A DNA stretch of 64,000 bases from Galerina marginata (lineage: Eukaryota; Basidiomycota; Agaricomycetes; Agaricales; Galerinaceae): NCBI GenBank assembly GCA_023014335.1, contig JAECYW010000026.1, forward strand, positions 620,001 to 684,000, given 5' to 3'. Within the stretch, counting starts at the first letter, position 1. Every line of letters begins with the position of its first letter. The position numbers and the translations under genes were made by a program. Under the pieces are notes generated by a model, which did no database searches, was not told where the DNA came from, and worked only from the letters and a program-made list of their open reading frames with translations. Shown here in pieces: positions 39,504 to 64,000 of this stretch.

Positions 39504-41084
39504 CTATGAATTATCTTTAAAATCGAGAGCAAAGGAATTTCCGTCCCCACAAATATACTCCTGTCTGTGGATGCCACTGAACCACACCACCCTCAACCCA
39601 GGAACCTGATCTAAGGGGCCAAGGTTGTAATGCTTTAGCCGGCACTCTGGGTCTTTCGTCAGATCGAGAACTTGAATTGGCGCATTCACGACGCTTCTCA
39701 GAGCGAGAAAATCCAACAGGCCATCTGGGTCGAGATTGTCGAATTCGCTAATTACCAGCTCTGTGAGGGAGGGCATGCGGATGGCGTTTCCCTCGGTAAG
39801 CATCGGACTGAGGAAGCGGAGAGCATTGGGGTTGACTTCTAATTCTTCAACAGAGGATAGCAAGGAGAGGGTCTGGCTAAGGTTTGCATCGTTCGGCTGC
39901 AAACCATGGTCCGAAATAATAATTGAACATCGTATGATATCCTCGAGTTGCACTGAGCTTGAACTGAGAGCTTTTAGGAACATGCACGGATCGGGGATAT
40001 CACTCTCGAACTCGAGCCCAAAGCTGAATGAAAAGCCACATGCGGAGATATTGAACTTGCGTTTGTCCATCTCCAATATGAGGTCGTAAGGTGAAAAATG
40101 TTTGAAGCAAAGCTCGAAATAGGAATGCAGGACACGTTGTGCTGCAATAAGGTTCGATTGGACGAGCGCAGCAACGCCAGTTTGGAAACGGAATTCGGAC
40201 GCAGCGGGGAGAACGAGGTGCTCCAAAACCGCGAGGTACTTGTTCATCGCCTGTCCTGTATTCACTCCGAAGTCTTTGAGGCGCGGTAGGGTCACTGTTT
40301 GCAGCATATTTTTTCCTATCACAGGCATCTCAGCCTCCTCCGTGTCCGTGAATACCTCCAGCCTCTCAAGGAACGGCATTTGGGACAAGACATCGAGAAA
40401 TTCGGTGGCTGCAAAGTGACAGGTGAAGTGCAGATTGCGGATGTCGGTTAACCAGGTACTATGTAAGCCCCGAATCTTGAAGTCCGCGCTCGCGAAATGT
40501 TTGATAAGTGGTGCGTGGTTCCCAAACATGTTCAACCCGATTGTAGCCAGCAGCGAGCGAGGTGGAGGTCGTTCTAGAACCACGGAGTAATGCTCTAACT
40601 GAGGCGCAGGGGTCTGAAAAGCACGCCACATCGCGTCCTCTGCGAGTGGGCAGCTTCGCCCAAGCCCGATATTGAGCCACCGAATCCTAGACCACTGCTT
40701 TTCCAGGATCAAGGCGAGGAATGCTTCTAACCTGCTATCACCGTGCCCTAGCCAGGCTTGGATGTACAGAGGCGAGTTGTCCGTCCGTCGTAAGACCTCG
40801 ATGCGCCAGTCGTCCGAGGGCTGTTGGAGACACGCAAAGTCGATGACTCTTCCCCATAACGAGGGCGAGCCAAGGATAAGTTCCCGCCAGGATGTGGATA
40901 CCTGAGAGAGGCGGCGGAGGGAGATTAAAGCGCGGGGGTTGTTGTCATTCCCCTTGATGTGGGCCAGTACGGAAAAAATGCGCCAGAGGATATCTTGGTT
41001 TAGGTTGAATATAGGTGATTGGGAGTCCAGGTTTCTGGACTGTGCGTCTTGAGAAGGCGGCTTGAGGTTGACTTCCTTTTCCAT
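39504..41084 (-). CDS. F-box protein with long LRR-like body (not family A or B)
   Basis: One uninterrupted frame of 526 residues. After a polar leader the F-box occupies about residues 27-80 (FNLNQDILWRIFSVLAHI, then LSQVSTSWRELILGSPSLWG), the F-box-like form common in agaricomycetes. The rest has irregular leucine-rich stretches (LEHLVLPAAS, FLERLEVFTDTEE, LTELVISEFDNLD). It probably recruits a substrate to an SCF ligase. It differs from its neighbours in length, in lacking an intron and in F-box subtype, so it is an independent gene sitting inside the family B array. Confidence 0.8.
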   Translation of the reverse strand: MEKEVNLKPPSQDAQSRNLDSQSPIFNLNQDILWRIFSVLAHIKGNDNNPRALISLRRLSQVSTSWRELILGSPSLWGRVIDFACLQQPSDDWRIEVLRRTDNSPLYIQAWLGHGDSRLEAFLALILEKQWSRIRWLNIGLGRSCPLAEDAMWRAFQTPAPQLEHYSVVLERPPPRSLLATIGLNMFGNHAPLIKHFASADFKIRGLHSTWLTDIRNLHFTCHFAATEFLDVLSQMPFLERLEVFTDTEEAEMPVIGKNMLQTVTLPRLKDFGVNTGQAMNKYLAVLEHLVLPAASEFRFQTGVAALVQSNLIAAQRVLHSYFELCFKHFSPYDLILEMDKRKFNISACGFSFSFGLEFESDIPDPCMFLKALSSSSVQLEDIIRCSIIISDHGLQPNDANLSQTLSLLSSVEELEVNPNALRFLSPMLTEGNAIRMPSLTELVISEFDNLDPDGLLDFLALRSVVNAPIQVLDLTKDPECRLKHYNLGPLDQVPGLRVVWFSGIHRQEYICGDGNSFALDFKDNS

Positions 41085-42563: not shown

Positions 42564-42889
42564 ATGCCTGCCTTATTCGCCGCACTCGTCCTGCTCCTCC
42601 AATATACGTCTCTAATTTCGGCTAGCACAACTCTCCGTCCTCCCATCAAGACGGTCGTTGAACCACGGTCGGCAATAATTCGCGGCCTCATTGATCTCGA
42701 TCAACGACAAACGTACTACTATTGCCCAGCCCCAGCGTACAGTTGCGTATACAACGGCAATTGCTGTGTTAACTCGAATTATCCATGTTGCAGAGGTAAG
42801 CATTCTTTGTGACCTGCTGCCTTCACAACGACTCATCAGGGTATGGATTAATGGCATGTAGGCGGAGTGTGTTGCTACCCGGGCACCTA

Positions 42890-44148
42890 CTCGTGCCCGC
42901 ATTTAGTATCCGTGATTATGTAATTTGATGGCATTGCCCGACTTTCCAGTCGAGAGTGAATGTGCTCGTTCTCGAGAAATAAGATAGCTGGATACCTAAA
43001 AATCTCAGGAGGATACACTGTACCATTATGAAGTACTCAGGTAAATTTTTTTTGTGAAGGTGATATTATTACGTTGAGGAGACTTGTATCAATCACCTTA
43101 TAAAAATTTTAGTGTTGATACGAAGTTCAGGGCGGTAGAGTCATATCAGGACTATGAATCGGCCGTATAACTCATGAATAAGATTTAAGAGGTGTCAAAG
43201 AGTACAGTCATTCACCGGTCAATGAGGCATCCAAATAAAAATTGACCTCAGAATCCGTTTCTGTAAAAAGTAATTTCAGTATAAGTCAGCCAAAGGTTCG
43301 TATATACCATGGCGTACGGTATATGTAGTTAAAACTTAGAAATTGGAGGGATGAGCATCATATCGAGCCTTATCAGTTTCGAAAGCCAGGATCAGAGTCA
43401 AACCAGTCAATGAGGCATCAGTCACAATTGCTTAATTTGGCACGAATTGATCAATCCCACCACTGTTTTCGCTTGTGACATTTGTGACTATTTGATTCAT
43501 TCCGAATCCATTTTCATCCTTTCAGTCTTTTACACCTAAGCACATAGCTCAGATAGCCCTTAACTTTTTGTACACACGTAGAATAGTCTACCTTAAAGTA
43601 GTATGCAAAAATAACCAGTCATTTGCTGCATTTGGCTACTAAATTCCTAAAAATCAAATTCACATTTCTGATGCATCTTACCTGATTTCGGATTATCAGA
43701 AGATCGAAACATCAGAGAGCTACAAAATTTGGAAGACATATAGAGGTAATGTACATCTTCCTAGGAAAAAAGAGATCAAGAGAAATGGTTAGGAATTACG
43801 CACAGAATATGATTTTGACTCATTGAGTGGGGTGACTCATTGACCGGTGAATGACTGTACCTCCAATTTTTTACAAGGCAGCAGCGGCACTTCTGAACAA
43901 GAATTTCGTGATGCAAATTTGGTCACTGATTGGAACAATCCGGCAAATTTCTAGATTGACGTCTCACGGTGTTTCTAGACATCATATCTCACCCAAATTT
44001 GAGATCTGTACTCTTTAATAGTATCTGATTCAGTTCTCGCATTTTCAGCTATCTGGGTTTCCTATTTCTCGAGAACGAGGTCATTTTCTCTCGACAACTA
44101 GCTGGGAAGCCGGATTACATAATCACGGATACTAAAAACGGGCACGAG
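42890..44148. mobile_element. non-autonomous DNA element with TA target duplication (outer element)
   Basis: The 1259-bp insert has termini CTCGTGCCCG..TTTAGTATCC / its reverse complement. Similarity continues through CGTGATTATGTAAT and, more loosely, for about 110 bp (both ends carry CTCGTTCTCGAGAAATA). It is flanked by TA at 42888-42889 and 44149-44150. No transposase frame was found. A second element is nested inside, so the original length was about 604 bp. Confidence 0.85.
43205..43857. mobile_element. nested Tc1/mariner-type MITE
   Basis: 653 bp with inverted termini CAGTCATTCACCGGTCAATG / CATTGACCGGTGAATGACTG. It is flanked by TA (43203-43204 and 43858-43859). CAGT...ACTG ends with TA duplication are typical of the Tc1/mariner group, including pogo-like elements. 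A second CAGTCAATGAGGCATCAGTC-like copy of the terminal motif occurs inside near 43405. No ORF of transposase size. Confidence 0.8.
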
Positions 44149-44746
44149 TATTGTGTTCTGGCGTCAAATGGTAATATTGGATGCTGCGACGATGGCGAAA
44201 TCTGTTCAGGCCCTGTCGGTAACCCAACAACGTCAACCATCTTCCACACAACCACAAGCACCCGCAGGAGCATCTTCACAAGCACCTCTAGTTAGCATCT
44301 CGCGCTCTCTGAAGAGTTTAAATTGGTTAACTCAGTGTTTCTATCAGCAGAGGCTCAAATAGAGACTACCTTCTCCAGTATAACGCAGCCAGCCACTTCA
44401 TCCTCTAGCTTACCCAAAGACTCGACAACCTCGAGGGCTACAACAACTTTGACTACATCATTCTCGACGGCCAATATATTCACAAGCGCCCTTCCCACAT
44501 TCACATCCAGTCCGGATCTTACCAGCGCTGCGTTTAAAACTACTCGACATACAGCGGGCGTCATTTGCCTTTCGGCATTCTTGTGCCTAGTTTTCACCAC
44601 GACGATCCTTTGAATATCGTCCCTTGGATAGGTACTTGCGCCTAAATCGGATAATGTGGCTTATTACGGATCCTCGCCTTTGTAGCAACTGTTGTACAGC
44701 TCGAAATCCTCGACTCGGGAATCTTCATATACCTCATATACCACTG

Positions 44747-44943: not shown

Positions 44944-45220
44944 CTGCACTATTTCGCTCAATTCGTCCAGTCCCACGTCACAGGCCTACTGGACGTGGAC
45001 GAAATCGGTCCATGTCCCGTGTCACAGAAACCTTGGCCGCTTGTTCGGGCAAAATGTCACCTTCCGGGCGCTTCGCGGGGCGCAAGCGCCCCGCATTTTG
45101 CACTAAATTGGACGAAATTTCGGCCGGTGTCCCCTTGCACCACGCTGATTGGCCGAAATCAAAAATTCGTCCACCGTGTCCCAGGTCACACCCCTGGACG
45201 AATTGAGCAAAATAGTACAG
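44944..45220. mobile_element. MITE, 277 bp, TA target duplication
   Basis: The termini CTGCACTATTTCGCTCAATT and AATTGAGCAAAATAGTACAG form inverted repeats of 27 bp (two mismatches, ending CGTCCAG inward). TA flanks lie at 44942-44943 and 45221-45222. The centre holds a strong GC-rich hairpin (GGGCGCTT..AAGCGCCC near 45067-45093), and further inverted segments (CTGGACG / CGTCC) lie between. No coding capacity. Confidence 0.85.
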
Positions 45221-58340: not shown

Positions 58341-59688
58341 CTATTCGCTGGCAGGGAGTCCGCTAGCCAACGCCTTCCACTCTTCAGACGAGGCTGACGA
58401 GACAGCAAATGTTAAACTCTCGATTTGCGCTGGAGCTTGTCGGTTTCCTGGTAATATGGCCATAAATCTACCCGCAATGACAGAGTGCTCGAGGCCATGC
58501 ATCGTAAGCAATTCATACTTTGTGAAACCTGTCGTCTGTAGGTCGCCCAGGACGCGAGGATTGTAGTAGTTCCGACCTCCGAAGAATGCCAACATTTCGT
58601 CTGTCAAGTCGTCGTCGTCATTGGGCGATACCGAGACCGCAGTGGCAGAAGTTTCCCGGCTTCGGTGTCTGCGTTTTGCTGACGGTTGGACGTCCTGTTC
58701 AACTTCCTCGTTATCAACGACTTCTTGCTCCTCTTTTTTACGCTTTGTCTTTATCTTCTATGGGTATACCAGTAGAGTAGTGAATGTTAGATAGAATCGA
58801 CGAGAATATTTGAACTAATCACTTGCCTTCGTCTCCTCAGGAGGAGGAGGGGTAGGCTCGGGGTCGTTTGGGGCTAACACATCCTGCAATCAAACGGCGG
58901 TTATCAGAAGATTCGTAGCTATTAAGCTCATAATAAAGGCGATGGACGCACTTGTTTACTTGGCGCCTTTGTCTTCTTCGGTGTTTTCTGTAAGTCGGTA
59001 CAAAAATCAGTTTACCAGTACCAAACACGAAGGCAAATTCCTACCCCGGTGACTTCGGTCGCGGCGCGGACGGGTGGGGTCCTTTCTCTCGTGTCCAATG
59101 TTTCTGGTTCGTCCTTCAGAGGGGCCGGAGGCAGAATAGCAGGGTTACCTTGTTGCTGTGGTATCACTTCCAGTCGAGCTTTTATCCCCTTCATAGTTTT
59201 ATTCATCTCAGCGTCCCTCTGAGCCTTCTTCCTGGCCTTCTTAGACTTCCTTCTCTGTGTTCTCTACTCGTCCAGAATAAATGAAGCTGTGAATTGGATT
59301 TAGAATATCAATATCGAATAATTGCTTACGCTGAGAGGAGGTTCGGTATCTTCTTCTTCGCTATCACTGTTGGAACTTGAAGATGACCCGGACCCCTGCC
59401 ATGGGCAACGGTAATGTCCATTAGCCCCAAAGCCCAGTATAACAGCAAACAGCCCAAACCTTAGCAGCCGAATGTGAAGCAATCACAGCTTGCATCTCCT
59501 AAAAAATTTCCGAGTTATTATCCAGACACTCGATAACCATGAAGAGCTGACGCATCGGCTGTCGCGTCATAACACCTGGGCTTGGGAATCGTCGTACTTA
59601 CGGCAACAGCATCTTCGCAGTCGGATGAATTCGAGTCCGAACTCGAGTCACTTTCTGGAGAAGTCATATCCTCCTCGTCTGAAGACAT
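58341..59688 (-). CDS. unknown protein, acidic and Lys-rich, seven exons, probably nuclear
   Basis: Exons 59602-59688, 59460-59498, 59330-59395, 59045-59263, 58952-58987, 58827-58883 and 58341-58757 close in frame to 306 residues. The N terminus is acidic and Ser-rich (MSSDEEDMTSPESDSSSD; SNSDSEEEDTEPP). The middle is strongly basic (RKSKKARKKAQR; KTPKKTKAPSK; KIKTKRKKEE). The last about 90 residues look folded (MLAFFGGRNYYNPRVLGDL; FTKYELLTMHGLEHSVIAG). The charge pattern suggests a chromatin or nucleolar role, which is inference only. The intron after exon 6 starts GCAAGT, a GC-AG intron; a GT donor in frame was not found there. Confidence 0.7.
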
Positions 59689-59878
59689 CTCTTGCTAGCC
59701 AACGAATGAAGCAGAGAGCTCAAAGAAACATCGTACGGGAGACAAGTCGGAAAGGCAGAAATTTGGTTTGGCTGCTGGCAACGTGACCGCGTAATAGAGG
59801 ATTGATCAGGTGATTAGAGGCACCGACTAATGTCGATCATTTTGATGGCATTTTAACCGTTCCAACGTCCACGATGCC

Positions 59879-61380
59879 ATGAACAACCTCAAAGCCTTCA
59901 GCCGTGCTGTTCGTTTACTTCATAGGTCATCCGATGCAGTTCTGAAGTTCCCAGAAGAGGCGCTTGGACTTTCCGTCGCTGAAAAGGGTGGTTTTTACGC
60001 AGCTGCCTTGGGGTCGACTCTTAAGGCAAGGTACACTTTGGTTGGCAAGCTGGGATGGGGGATCCATTCCAGCGTTTGGCTTGCGCGAGACTTAAGGTGC
60101 GTCTGATACTCATATTGAAATACAAATGCTTCAGTTCGTCTATTTTGCGTGTAGGCAACAACAGCGTCATGTCGCTGTCAAAATATTGTCAGCGCATGCA
60201 ACGCAGGTTCAAGGGAGGCTCGCCGATGAGCTCAATATTCTTAGACGGATCAACAGCAATGACACGAAAGAGCATCCTGGTCGCAAACATGTTACCACCT
60301 TGCTTGACAACTTTACAATTACGGGTCATCATGGCGCCCATCTTTGCCTTGTATCTGCGGCTTGTGGTGCTTTCAAGGGTTCGCTATTTAATTCCGGTCA
60401 GAAGCTGCCAGTTGGATTCGTGAAGGTAATCGGGAGGCAGCTATTGCATGCTCTGGACTATTTGCATCGCGAATGTCGAATCATTCATACGGGTACGATT
60501 ATAGTCTTATTTTCCTTGCAAATTTTCATGGCCTCGAAAGACCTCAAATCCGACAACATTCTTGTCAGCCTTCAAGATCCACAACAATCCTTTCAACGTT
60601 ACTCAACCCGACTATCAGAATCGGAGGCTTTCCATGATACGACGCCTGTTGTATCCCGCTCAATCGTTGAGTTCAGCACCAATAACACGCAGAGCAACGA
60701 CGCCCCACAACCTGGTTTTGAAGTTCAGTTGACAGATTTCGGGACCGGTGAGAGCGATCTTCCTCGCAAATCCACGGTTGACCTTGAATTATTTAGCGGC
60801 CACGGTGGATGGCCCACATGCAGACGTTATCCAGCCTTACGCCTTGCGTGCCCCAGAAGTTATCTTGGGCAATGGGTGGCATACCGCCGCGGATATCTGG
60901 AACTTAGGGTGTCTGGTGAGTTTAATTCTATCCATTGTAGTCGTTGCGGCACAGTACCACTCATCGCGATTTCTAGTTGTTTGAATTTCTTACTGGAAGT
61001 TGGCTCTTTTCCCCGCGAGGCGGACCCACCTGGAGCGCGGAATCCTACCATCTGGCCCATATGCCTGTAATAGCCGGAGAAGGATTCGATTTCGAGTACA
61101 TTCGAAAGGGAAAGCATTTCGAAAAATACTTTACACCCGAAGGTGACTTGCTATCTTATGATGTAGAAAATGCTTGCTAAAACGAATCGCATCTATAGGC
61201 CTTCTATCCATCCAAGTGAAGAAGATTCGGAACCTGGAGCAAGCTCTGGACGCTTATCGTGTCTTGGACGATGCTGAGAAACTGCTTTGTGTAGATTTCT
61301 TGAAGGCAATGTTGCGGTTAAAACCTTCGGAACGGAGTACGGCTGCCGAACTGCTCGAACATAGTTGGATTAAACCTTGA
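59879..61380 (+). CDS. SRPK-type serine/threonine protein kinase
   Basis: Exons 59879-60096, 60155-60492, 60541-60747, 60797-60915, 60977-61142 and 61199-61380 give 409 residues with GT-AG introns throughout. Kinase motifs: glycine loop GKLGWGIHSSVWLA (about 57-70), HVAVKIL with catalytic Lys 82, IIHTDLKSDNILV (the HTD form is typical of SRPKs; Asp 186), TDFGTA (Asp 251), ALRAPEVILG (about 270-279) and AELLEHSWI at the end. SRPKs phosphorylate SR proteins and related RS-rich targets. The long SRPK spacer insert is short here (about residues 195-245), as in many agaricomycete paralogues. A two-codon ORF, ATGCCATGA, overlaps the start codon. Confidence 0.85.
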
Positions 61381-62325
61381 GGCTTTTATCCTGTTCTTAG
61401 CCAGATTCGACGTTTCGGCGATGGTAGATGGTTCGCAAGCGGCCTCAGGAGTTTCTTGAGCTGTTTCCGCCGGTACACCCACGTCTCACTGCAGAAATCT
61501 ATTATGCACCAGCCAGTCGTTTCACTGCCGCTGTCTGGCCCCTTCTTTATTGGTTCGTTACGCGAATGGTTGGGTGATTTTGAAAATGATCCGTCAGGTG
61601 TTGCCATTGTCACAATCTTGTTTTATAGTTCAGTCGTCTCTCGTAAGTACGAATTACGTTCAGGTTATGGAATTATAGAAGAATCTCTTGATTACACGTC
61701 TACGGGTAAGTATAATTGGCATCGCATGAGTCCGACTCACGCGAAAGTTGAAACATTCTCCGTGACCCTCCAAACATATCTCTCACTCCCAAGTCCCGAA
61801 GTTCTTCACGCGAAATACAGACTTGAGCCCTATTTTCGCCGTATCTCGAATGCGTAGGTTACTTGGTAGTCTTGATGGCCAGACGATGACGATATGCCGT
61901 CCTTGTAACAAGCCTCCTCGTTATTGGCGGGCTGCCGACGGAAAAAAGGATTACGCGTCTAATTGAATGTCGTAAGTATATGTGCCGGCGCCAGTGCCCT
62001 TCACCGACCTGATTTCATTAATCAAAGAGAACACGTTATAGGCTCGACTATAGATCTGTATCAGGCTGGGAATTGGGTCGCCAAAGCCGTCATGGCTCGT
62101 TGCGCAGTTCTAGCTGAGAAGCACTGTAATTAGATAGTCCAATTTCGAGGGCTTCGGGCAGAAGTCCCTCTGCCGAAGATGACTACCCTTCTTATAATCC
62201 AAGCTGAATGCTCCGAGTCGTCTGTCGGGGTATATGTAACCCGCCATGTTTCCGGGTCCAGGGTTGCCTATAGCTGGGTGGAGGAATTTCAGCGTCATCT
62301 ATCCCGACGTCTTATGCCGTCCGCG
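61381..62325. other. intergenic between convergent genes
   Basis: An ORF at 61456-61857 (133 codons) has no recognisable features. The region separates the kinase (plus) from the DUF6533 gene (minus) and is probably 3' sequence. Confidence 0.35.
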
Positions 62326-63638
62326 TTATGGAATGTCCGCGGTGGCAAGGAAGATAGTTTCGAGCGAACGCCGTGATTCCACGAACGACATTTCAAGAGC
62401 CGAGGTCAATTCAACGTCAACGGCCTCCGGGGGAGTTTGCTTCAAGTTGTGCATGTTGATTATGAGTCTGCAGGCCTATGAACGACGTTAGAAATATAGA
62501 TCGAAAGGCTCAGAAAACCGCAGACGAACCAGTACCGAGAAAGCACAGGTTATAAGCCTAAGAAAGCAGAGTTCGTCAACTGCATTTGAAAAGTCAAACG
62601 TGAAATTTGCTTACGGCACAGCAATGTGAGCAATATCTTTAACACGAAAGAAAACGGGCATGAAAACAAGGAGCATCGCTTGATAATGGAATAAGGCACC
62701 ATAATAATACACATGTCGAAGGAGACGCACCAATTATCGCGACAAACGTCGAGCTTCCATCTCGCATTACTCTTGAGACTACCGGGATATCTGCCCATCC
62801 TTCCTGCAAGCCTTGCCGGTATTTGTATAGAGCAAATCCCCAGATAATCGTTTGTGTGACACCTACGCACCCTCTAGGTCGGGAATGGCAAAACGTTAGA
62901 ACCTTCCAAACTAGGCTCAAAAAACTTGAACGTACCCTACACGCGCCATTTCTCGAGAAGCAGAGGTAACGATGCAAGCAGCATCGTATTCCAAACTGTC
63001 GAATGACGAGAATCCGAGATATACACCCAGACACATTTCAGCTAGGATTGCAAAGGTCAATATGCACCCAACTAAGGTGCTCTTCCTGTATAACGCGTAG
63101 ACTGTTGATTTAAATCAGCAGTAAACCCAAGCAATAAGCTGATTTCGTACCTCGGAGGACAAGGATCACTTCGACCGACGTTTGAAGCGCCATTATGGTT
63201 ATGATTTGGATGTAGAACCACTTGCGACAAGTTTCGGAAGGAATTGATGTCGTCGATAGAGGCCCAGTCGCGTAGAAAACGGAAAAGCTGCAAAGACAGG
63301 CTGTATTAGACAGCATACGGAAGGTTAACAAACACAGGAACCCCACATTTGACTGCCGATGCCAAAGTAACGCGCGAAAAGATACAAAAACTTGACTCTG
63401 CTCGGAGGACTCCTGGGAGAAAGAGCTGAGGAAAACAGCTCAACGATAATCTCGACGCTCACTTGAAGATGAATATGTATTCCTTATCGAAGTTGGAGAC
63501 GGTGTCCCATGTGAGAAACGCCAGACCAGCGACTATAAGAGGGTCAATTGAGTACAACATTCCAGCCAAATACGTACTGCATGCACATTTGCGAGAAAAT
63601 TGGTCAGAGTTGGCTAACGCGGTGTGGGGCATTTGCAT
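62326..63638 (-). CDS. DUF6533-type multi-spanning membrane protein
   Basis: Minus-strand exons: about 63463-63638, 63412 to about 63325, about 63300 to 63151, 62936-63101, 62731-62873, one near 62600-62677 and a last one near 62326-62475. The first exons give the DUF6533 pattern: DPLIVAGLAFLTWDTVSNFD, KSPPSRVKFLYLFARYFGI. Then come CRKWFYIQIITIMALQTSVE, RVYALYRKS, a hydrophobic helix (TLVGCILTFAILAEMCLGVY), TQTIIWGFALYKYR, VMRDGSSTFVAII and CRLIINMHNLKQ. The family is widespread and expanded in agaricomycetes and its function is unknown. The start (MQMPHTALAN) and two splice junctions are uncertain. Confidence 0.6.
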
Positions 63639-64000
63639 GCAGCTTGCGAGTATGGGGAGGAATAACACGCCAACGTCGAACTCTATAGGCTCCAAATTCA
63701 AGCCTTCAGTCGATGTCAAGTGACAGCTGGTGAGGGAAGCAGACAAAGGTTTGAAATTTGAATTATCGGACAAGGTGATTGAAGATCAGGGTGACGAGTG
63801 ATGACAGTTCACGTGAACATTGGTCGCTGAAAACATAGTAACAATTACCCCCGCATCAGAACGTCCAATGGTCTACTGGGGGACGAGAATTGAGAAACTT
63901 TAGCGATCGCATTTAAATTTCTGATAGGATTACTTGACGGAAGGTGGAAATACTGTAACATCCAGGTGGGACCTCTGCGTTCCACAAGACTAGAATTTCG
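63639..64000. other. window end, no gene seen
   Basis: The minus-strand frame of the DUF6533 gene stays open to 63773 without an ATG before 63638, so the true first exon might lie here. Nothing else recognisable. Confidence 0.3.

What the first reader, a model, noticed from the sequence alone, without database searches (positions are those of the whole stretch)
42888..44150. Element nested in element disrupts a GPI-anchored cysteine-rich protein gene
Seen: the outer element (1259 bp, CTCGTGCCCG ends) and inner element (653 bp, CAGTCATTCACC ends) both have TA flanks. Deleting the outer element with one TA restores an exact frame and the spacing CCYPGTYC...GCCDDGEIC. The gene must have been intact until recently, so the insertion is a candidate polymorphism affecting a cell-surface protein.
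Basis: partly seen in the sequence, partly recalled or inferred. Interest (0 to 1): 0.75.

Follow-up and report, generated by a model that had tools for sequence, protein, structure and literature searches.

The report
Nested transposons disrupt one gene copy
In a Galerina-like mushroom, a small jumping-DNA element that itself carries a second one has landed in a probable cell-surface protein gene, and the same genome assembly also holds the uninterrupted version of that gene, so this looks like a clean but ordinary example of jumping DNA breaking one of two gene copies.

Summary
The outer element is window 42890-44148 (1259 bp), the inner one 43205-43857 (653 bp); both are flanked by TA. The same assembly holds natural empty sites for both: contigs C27 and C17 carry the gene uninterrupted with one TA, and two outer-element copies on C34 lack the inner element, with one TA. 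The intact copy encodes a 220-aa protein (hydrophobic start, 12 cysteines, Ser/Thr-rich stalk, hydrophobic tail), 86% identical to a Galerina marginata protein. C19 (filled) and C27/C17 are colinear where compared over about 59 kb, so the best reading is a TE insertion polymorphism between two haplotypes. Flanking exons show no stops, frameshifts or excess replacement changes. The inner element has a likely autonomous partner: a 2.99-kb Fot-type pogo element on C3 with the same ends, DDE_1 domain, 35-residue D-D spacer and TA flanks. No partner was found for the outer element. Polymorphic TE insertions between nuclei are documented in Pleurotus ostreatus (PMC4905642, passages), so the finding is sound and unusually well resolved, but ordinary in kind. 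Effects on protein and expression are untested.

The parts
42564..42795 (+). Exon 1 of the disrupted gene (signal-like start and first cysteines)
   Evidence: Open frame, GT donor; 2 nt differences in the 231 nt compared with the natural intact copy
42796..42861 (+). Intron 1 (66 nt; 58 nt in the intact copy)
   Evidence: GTAAGC...TGTAG; removing it from the intact copy gives the frame seen in the G. marginata protein
42862..42889 (+). Exon 2, left of the insertion (ends ...CYPGT, then the TA of the TAT codon)
42888..42889 (.). TA target-site copy, left side of the outer element
   Evidence: Single TA in C27 and C17
44149..44150 (.). TA target-site copy, right side of the outer element
   Evidence: Single TA in C27 and C17
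42890..44148 (.). Outer TA-flanked inverted-repeat DNA element, 1259 bp (604 bp without the inner element and one TA); longest ATG frame in it 55 aa
   Evidence: Inverted ends; natural empty site; two relatives on C34 without the inner element; ORF scan
42890..42924 (+). Outer terminal inverted repeat, left tip
44114..44148 (-). Outer terminal inverted repeat, right tip
42921..42923 (+). In-frame stop (TAA) supplied by the outer terminal repeat; read-in product 97 aa if only intron 1 is spliced
43205..43857 (.). Inner element, 653 bp, non-autonomous (no ATG frame of 40 aa or more), Fot/pogo-type ends
   Evidence: Ends and copies; site empty in the C34 copies of the outer element; ORF scan
43203..43204 (.). 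TA target-site copy, left side of the inner element
   Evidence: Single TA in both C34 copies
43858..43859 (.). TA target-site copy, right side of the inner element
   Evidence: Single TA in both C34 copies
44149..44290 (+). Exon 2, right of the insertion (begins with the right TA copy; YCVLASNGNIGCCDDGEIC...)
   Evidence: 6 nt and 1 aa differences in 141 nt against the intact copy
44291..44350 (+). Intron 2 (60 nt)
   Evidence: GTTAGC...CAG; the 60-nt choice gives the frame that matches the G. marginata protein
44351..44613 (+). Exon 3: Ser/Thr-rich stalk, hydrophobic C-terminal tail, stop
44944..45220 (.). Third TA-flanked inverted-repeat element (277 bp) downstream of the gene, also absent from the intact copy

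Best explanation
A non-autonomous cut-and-paste DNA transposon (604 bp of its own sequence, TA target) was itself invaded at an internal TA by a 653-bp non-autonomous Fot/pogo-type element, and the outer element inserted at a TA in exon 2 of a gene for a secreted-type cysteine-rich, probably GPI-anchored protein on one haplotype (contig C19) of a Galerina-like mushroom. The other haplotype (contig C17, with near-identical C27) keeps the intact gene. Shown: both insertions, both TA duplications, both natural empty sites, the intact gene copy, and a transposase-bearing element with the inner element's ends. Inferred: that C19 and C17 are alleles of one locus in two nuclei, that a C3-type transposase moved the inner element, that an unknown transposase moved the outer one, and that the C19 copy is a null or truncation (stop after 97 aa) with function covered by the other nucleus. 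Whether the inner element entered the outer one before or after the outer one hit the gene is not known.
For: Empty gene site with one TA in C27 and C17. Both C34 outer copies without the inner element, one TA. Intact copy reads as a 220-aa protein, 86% identical over 100% of its length to GALMADRAFT_227106 of Galerina marginata CBS 339.88, whose uninterrupted motif marks the empty state as ancestral. C27 aligns in order along window 27018-58849, and the window start maps to C27:418186/C17:1109558, in the same order. This gene and its F-box neighbour each have one G. marginata cluster of one member, on contigs of the same length, 1,198,699. Inner partner: 8 two-ended copies among 20 end matches, one of them 2998 bp including the TAs on C3, with PF03184 DDE_1 at 6.2e-15 and HTH_Tnp_Tc5 at 1.2e-4 and a 35-residue D-D spacer.
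Against: The assembly has three copies of the segment (C19, C17, C27), and RPB2-type matches fall in only three places, on C12, C1 and C4, so the assembly is not simply two phased nuclei; C19 could be a duplicated segment and not an allele. C19-C17 divergence is a mosaic of 0-0.8% and 1-17.5% bins, which recombination between alleles or gene conversion between paralogues could both give. Window 4001-27017 and 58850-64000 were not aligned directly to C17 or C27. No autonomous partner for the outer element was found. No expression data.
Confidence: 0.85

Rival explanations
1. C19 and C17 are paralogous duplicated segments (for example an old segmental duplication with gene conversion), and the insertion sits in one paralogue of the gene and is not an allelic polymorphism.
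For: Three copies in the assembly, with C17 and C27 differing only by six 1-bp homopolymer indels over 29.8 kb; these could be two near-identical haplotypes of one locus with C19 as a second locus. RPB2-type matches fall in three places only.
Against: C19 is colinear with C27/C17 where compared over about 59 kb. Single-member clusters for this gene and its F-box neighbour in G. marginata CBS 339.88 point to one ancestral locus. C27 looks like a redundant copy of the end of C17: matched places keep nearly one offset (691,347 to 691,381) from C27:174316 to 470567, and 7,404 bases at the end of C27 match C17 with 0 mismatches.
Confidence: 0.13
2. The 1.26-kb insert is removed as part of a longer intron, so the C19 copy still makes a surface protein lacking part of the cysteine motif.
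For: Joining the intron-1 donor (42796) to the AG before 44210 keeps the frame and would delete the left piece of exon 2, the element and 61 further nt.
Against: Of 4 donors (exon-1 end and the left piece of exon 2; 3 GTs inside intron 1 were skipped, and sites inside the element were not tested) against the 6 AG acceptors before 44295 (10 found to 44340), the 7 in-frame pairs all lose 61-143 nt after the element, so none rebuilds the exact protein. The introns of this gene are 60-66 nt.
Confidence: 0.07
3. Assembly artefact: the element was misplaced into the C19 contig.
For: The assembly carries redundant contigs (C27 and C17; C39 and C41).
Against: TA duplication, exact inverted ends and colinear flanks are what transposition gives and misjoins do not.
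Confidence: 0.02

Closest known systems
Fot family of pogo transposons, clades with TA target sites (PMC7386202, passages read)
   Same: The inner element's partner on C3 has DDE_1, HTH_Tnp_Tc5, a 35-residue D-D spacer, TA flanks and 2.99 kb; the paper gives DD35D for almost all Fot/Fot-like elements, HTH_psq and/or HTH_Tnp_Tc5 motifs, and among Fot elements TA (not TAA) target sites only in FotC and FotD.
   Different: The inner element itself has no transposase; clade placement was not tested by a tree.
Miniature inverted-repeat transposable elements (MITEs) with TA target sites (category recalled)
   Same: Short, non-coding, inverted ends, TA duplication; the inner family has several copies and shares ends with an autonomous-size element.
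   Different: The outer family is very low in copy number (3 two-ended copies found) and has no known partner.
Polymorphic TE insertions between the nuclei of Pleurotus ostreatus N001 (PMC4905642, passages read)
   Same: TE present in one nucleus and absent at the same locus in the other; up to 50% of TE insertions were polymorphic between PC15 and PC9, with a subset of eight validated by PCR.
   Different: That genome is dominated by Class I elements and the passages stress expression effects; here two nested DNA elements sit inside a coding exon, each with a natural empty site.

Membership tests
Fot/pogo (for the inner element's partner, C3:490690-493687) | DDE_1 catalytic domain | tested here: met
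   PF03184, 6.2e-15, 55.7 bits against a cut-off of 22
Fot/pogo (for the inner element's partner, C3:490690-493687) | HTH_Tnp_Tc5 and/or HTH_psq DNA-binding domain | tested here: met
   PF03221, 1.2e-4, 22.5 bits against a cut-off of 22.2, so only just
Fot/pogo (for the inner element's partner, C3:490690-493687) | DD35D spacing | tested here: met
   35 residues between second and third D, residues chosen by eye
Fot/pogo (for the inner element's partner, C3:490690-493687) | TA or TAA target site and inverted ends | tested here: met
   24-base pattern (TA plus end) matched without mismatch on both sides; an empty site for this copy was not looked for
Fot/pogo (for the inner element's partner, C3:490690-493687) | Position in the Fot clade of a transposase tree | not tested
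   No tree was built
Fot-related MITE (inner element) | No transposase gene but the same ends as an autonomous element | tested here: met
   No ATG frame of 40 aa or more; 35 bases exact at one end and 60 bases at 91.7% at the other shared with C3
Fot-related MITE (outer element) | Ends shared with a DDE_1 element | tested here: not met
   22 exact tip matches, 6 of them the known copies' ends, against 26 for the reversed control; by printed coordinates none lies within 25 kb of the 16 DDE_1 matches, the nearest being 25.8 kb away on C10. Diverged tips would be missed
TA-target DNA transposon (outer element) | Inverted ends with TA duplication and an empty site | tested here: met
GPI-anchored protein (intact gene copy) | Signal peptide and C-terminal GPI signal | tested here: inconclusive
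   Hydrophobic start and tail seen by eye in the translation; no predictor was run
Granulin-type protein | Granulin domain match | tested here: not met
   UniRef names the relatives 'Granulins domain-' (name cut in the listing), but Pfam gave no granulin match for P0001 or P0002 at E<=1; the 220-aa protein of the intact copy was not itself scanned

The most novel reading that the evidence does not exclude
The two haplotypes encode two functional forms of one surface protein: the intact copy gives the anchored form, while the transposon end in C19 supplies a stop that turns the product into a 97-aa soluble cysteine-rich peptide (or an extended intron gives an anchored form without part of the cysteine motif), kept as a polymorphism and not a simple null.
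Probability: 0.06. Interest if true: 0.5.

Novelty: new member of a known kind. Interest (0 to 1): 0.3.

Why it matters
It is a clean worked case: two nested DNA transposons, each with a natural empty site in the same assembly, a candidate transposase source for one of them, and an apparently intact counterpart of the broken gene. It shows that small DNA elements can make haplotype-specific gene breaks in an agaric, and it gives a marker for haplotypes or nuclei. The general principle is already known.

Tried and rejected
Autonomous partner of the outer element: a long-tip pattern (6 matches), a mid-length tip (9 matches), a short exact tip (22 matches, reversed control 26), single-end loci on C34, C42 and C8 and the 16 DDE_1 matches gave none. 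A diverged relative on C1 (ends at about 930888 and 931845, 254-nt arms 79% complementary) has ATG frames of at most 93 aa, too short for a whole transposase.

A granulin assignment for the gene was dropped. A plasmid-collection search with the third element found nothing and was of little use. Paper searches listed no paper that I recognised as describing this locus or these elements; titles and starts of abstracts were seen, and passages only of PMC7325037, PMC7386202 and PMC4905642. The first dN/dS attempt had exon 1 out of register by one base and its pooled figures and read-in result are void; one search replaces them. C19:684001-694000 (L040) gave no match to the last 10 kb of C17 or C27, which is not where it should match; neither C17 nor C27 ends in telomere-like TTAGGG repeats.

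Full report
Host. The window is C19:620001-684000 of a 69.3-Mb, 43-contig assembly. The intact gene copy is 86% identical to a Galerina marginata CBS 339.88 protein, and the neighbouring F-box-like gene (window 39504-41084) is 91% identical to another. The host is therefore Galerina or very close to it; the species is not settled.

Observation. Searching each gene flank separately finds three places: C19 itself, C27 and C17. In the last two the left flank ends at 459248/1150627 and the right flank begins at 459247/1150626, a 2-base overlap that is the single TA; the sequence there reads GGCACCTATTGTG in C27 and C17. This is a natural empty site. For the inner element, the outer-family copies at C34:487021-487629 and 487792-488408 align to the outer halves on both sides with no inner element; both read GAAGAGTACCTC with one TA.

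Gene. The intact copy has exon 1, a 58-nt intron, exon 2, a 60-nt intron and exon 3, and gives 220 aa: hydrophobic start, 12 cysteines in the first 114 residues, Ser/Thr-rich stalk, hydrophobic tail. The G. marginata protein has the uninterrupted CYPGTYCVLASNGNIGCC, so the empty state is ancestral. In the C19 copy the outer element splits the TAT codon; reading in reaches a stop at 42921-42923, for a 97-aa product that lacks the last four of those cysteines, the stalk and the tail, and gains one cysteine from the element.

Decay. Over 218 of 220 codons (the two intron-split codons left out) the copies differ by 14 synonymous and 15 replacement substitutions, dS 0.090, dN 0.031; dN is 0.005 over the 85 codons before the insertion and 0.049 over the 133 after it. 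No stop or frameshift is present in the C19 exon pieces. Of 14 amino-acid differences, the G. marginata protein makes 6 derived in the filled copy, 7 derived in the intact copy and 1 ambiguous. So the interrupted copy is not visibly decaying faster; this fits a young insertion but has little power to date it.

Alleles or paralogues. C27 and C17 differ by 0 mismatches and six 1-bp homopolymer indels over 29,784 bases. Matched places keep nearly one offset (691,347 to 691,381) from C27:174316 to 470567, and 7,404 bases at the end of C27 match C17 with 0 mismatches and 2 gaps, so C27 appears to be a redundant copy of the end of C17; C27 left of 174316 was not looked at. C27 aligns in order along window 27018-58849, and window 1-2404 matches C27:418186-420552 and C17:1109558-1111924 at 96%, again in order; about 59 kb in all, of which 4001-27017 was not aligned directly. 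Divergence is mosaic in 400-base bins: 0-0.8% at 39.0-42.6 and 47.0-48.6 kb and 0-0.5% at 50.2-54.2 kb, elsewhere 1.0-17.5% (leaving out the bin with 52 aligned bases at the insertion). One sharp step lies at about 42.80 kb, about 90 bases left of the insertion, so the insertion sits at the edge of a diverged block and its age is bounded only by that block. RPB2-type matches (8 exon pieces) fall in three places, C12, C1 and C4; as three such genes are expected per haploid fungal genome (recalled), the assembly is largely collapsed with some second haplotypes retained. I favour alleles (about 0.85) over paralogues.

Inner family. An end pattern with up to 3 mismatches gives 20 matches and 0 in the reversed control. 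Sixteen of them form eight two-ended copies (C1, C3, C9, C12, C14, C19, C30, C43); C2, C4, C39 and C41 show one end each, and C39/C41 are 99.8% alike over 4981 bases. Five copies were aligned: the window copy is 92.2% identical to C1, 87.0% to C14 and C43, and 72.5% to C30; C14 and C43 are 96.8% alike. The C3 copy, 2.99 kb, carries two large open frames with HTH_Tnp_Tc5 and DDE_1 and a 35-residue D-D spacer. A protein search with the DDE_1 frame gave 237 relatives at E<=0.001 (120 listed; only the 7996 candidates sharing most words scored); most are unnamed, and those listed with a species name are mushroom-forming fungi (grouping recalled). Against PMC7386202 (passages) this is a Fot-type pogo element with TA target sites, as in FotC or FotD.

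Outer family. Only three two-ended copies were found: C19 and two on C34 that face each other, 162 nt apart, with 560-nt arms 100% complementary, which suggests recent local movement or conversion. The halves of the window copy are 84-87% identical to these. No transposase with these ends was found, so how it moved is inferred only from its ends and TA duplication.

Third element. A 277-bp TA-flanked inverted-repeat element at 44944-45220 is also missing from the C27 copy, so this part of the C19 haplotype has taken up more than one such element, unless the other lost it without a trace.

Verdict. Polymorphic TE insertions between nuclei are established for Pleurotus ostreatus (PMC4905642, passages). 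This is a well-resolved new member of a known kind.

Noticed in passing
window 44944-45220: Third TA-flanked inverted-repeat element (277 bp) absent from the C27 copy; a 137-bp piece is 80% like a stretch in L024 (C6).
   Followed up: partly
window 27000-59000: Divergence between C19 and C17 is a mosaic of nearly identical and 1-17.5% diverged blocks with sharp edges, one about 90 bases left of the insertion.
   Followed up: partly
L023:3021-4408 (C34:487021-488408): Two outer-family copies face each other 162 nt apart with 560-nt perfectly complementary arms.
   Followed up: partly
L007:1953-2230 and L005:2157-2842: Other inner-family copies (C9, C12) carry extra stretches of about 278 and 686 bp inside the element; they match nothing else among the fetched loci.
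   Followed up: partly
G000 C27 against C17; L025 against L026: The assembly holds long redundant contig stretches (C27 and the end of C17; C39 and C41 99.8% identical over 4981 bases).
   Followed up: partly
window 542-55755: Many similar long open frames that look like F-box protein genes. Of two scanned, 39504-41084 matched F-box-like just under Pfam's cut-off (23.9 against 24.3 bits) and 542-1426 matched nothing.
   Followed up: no
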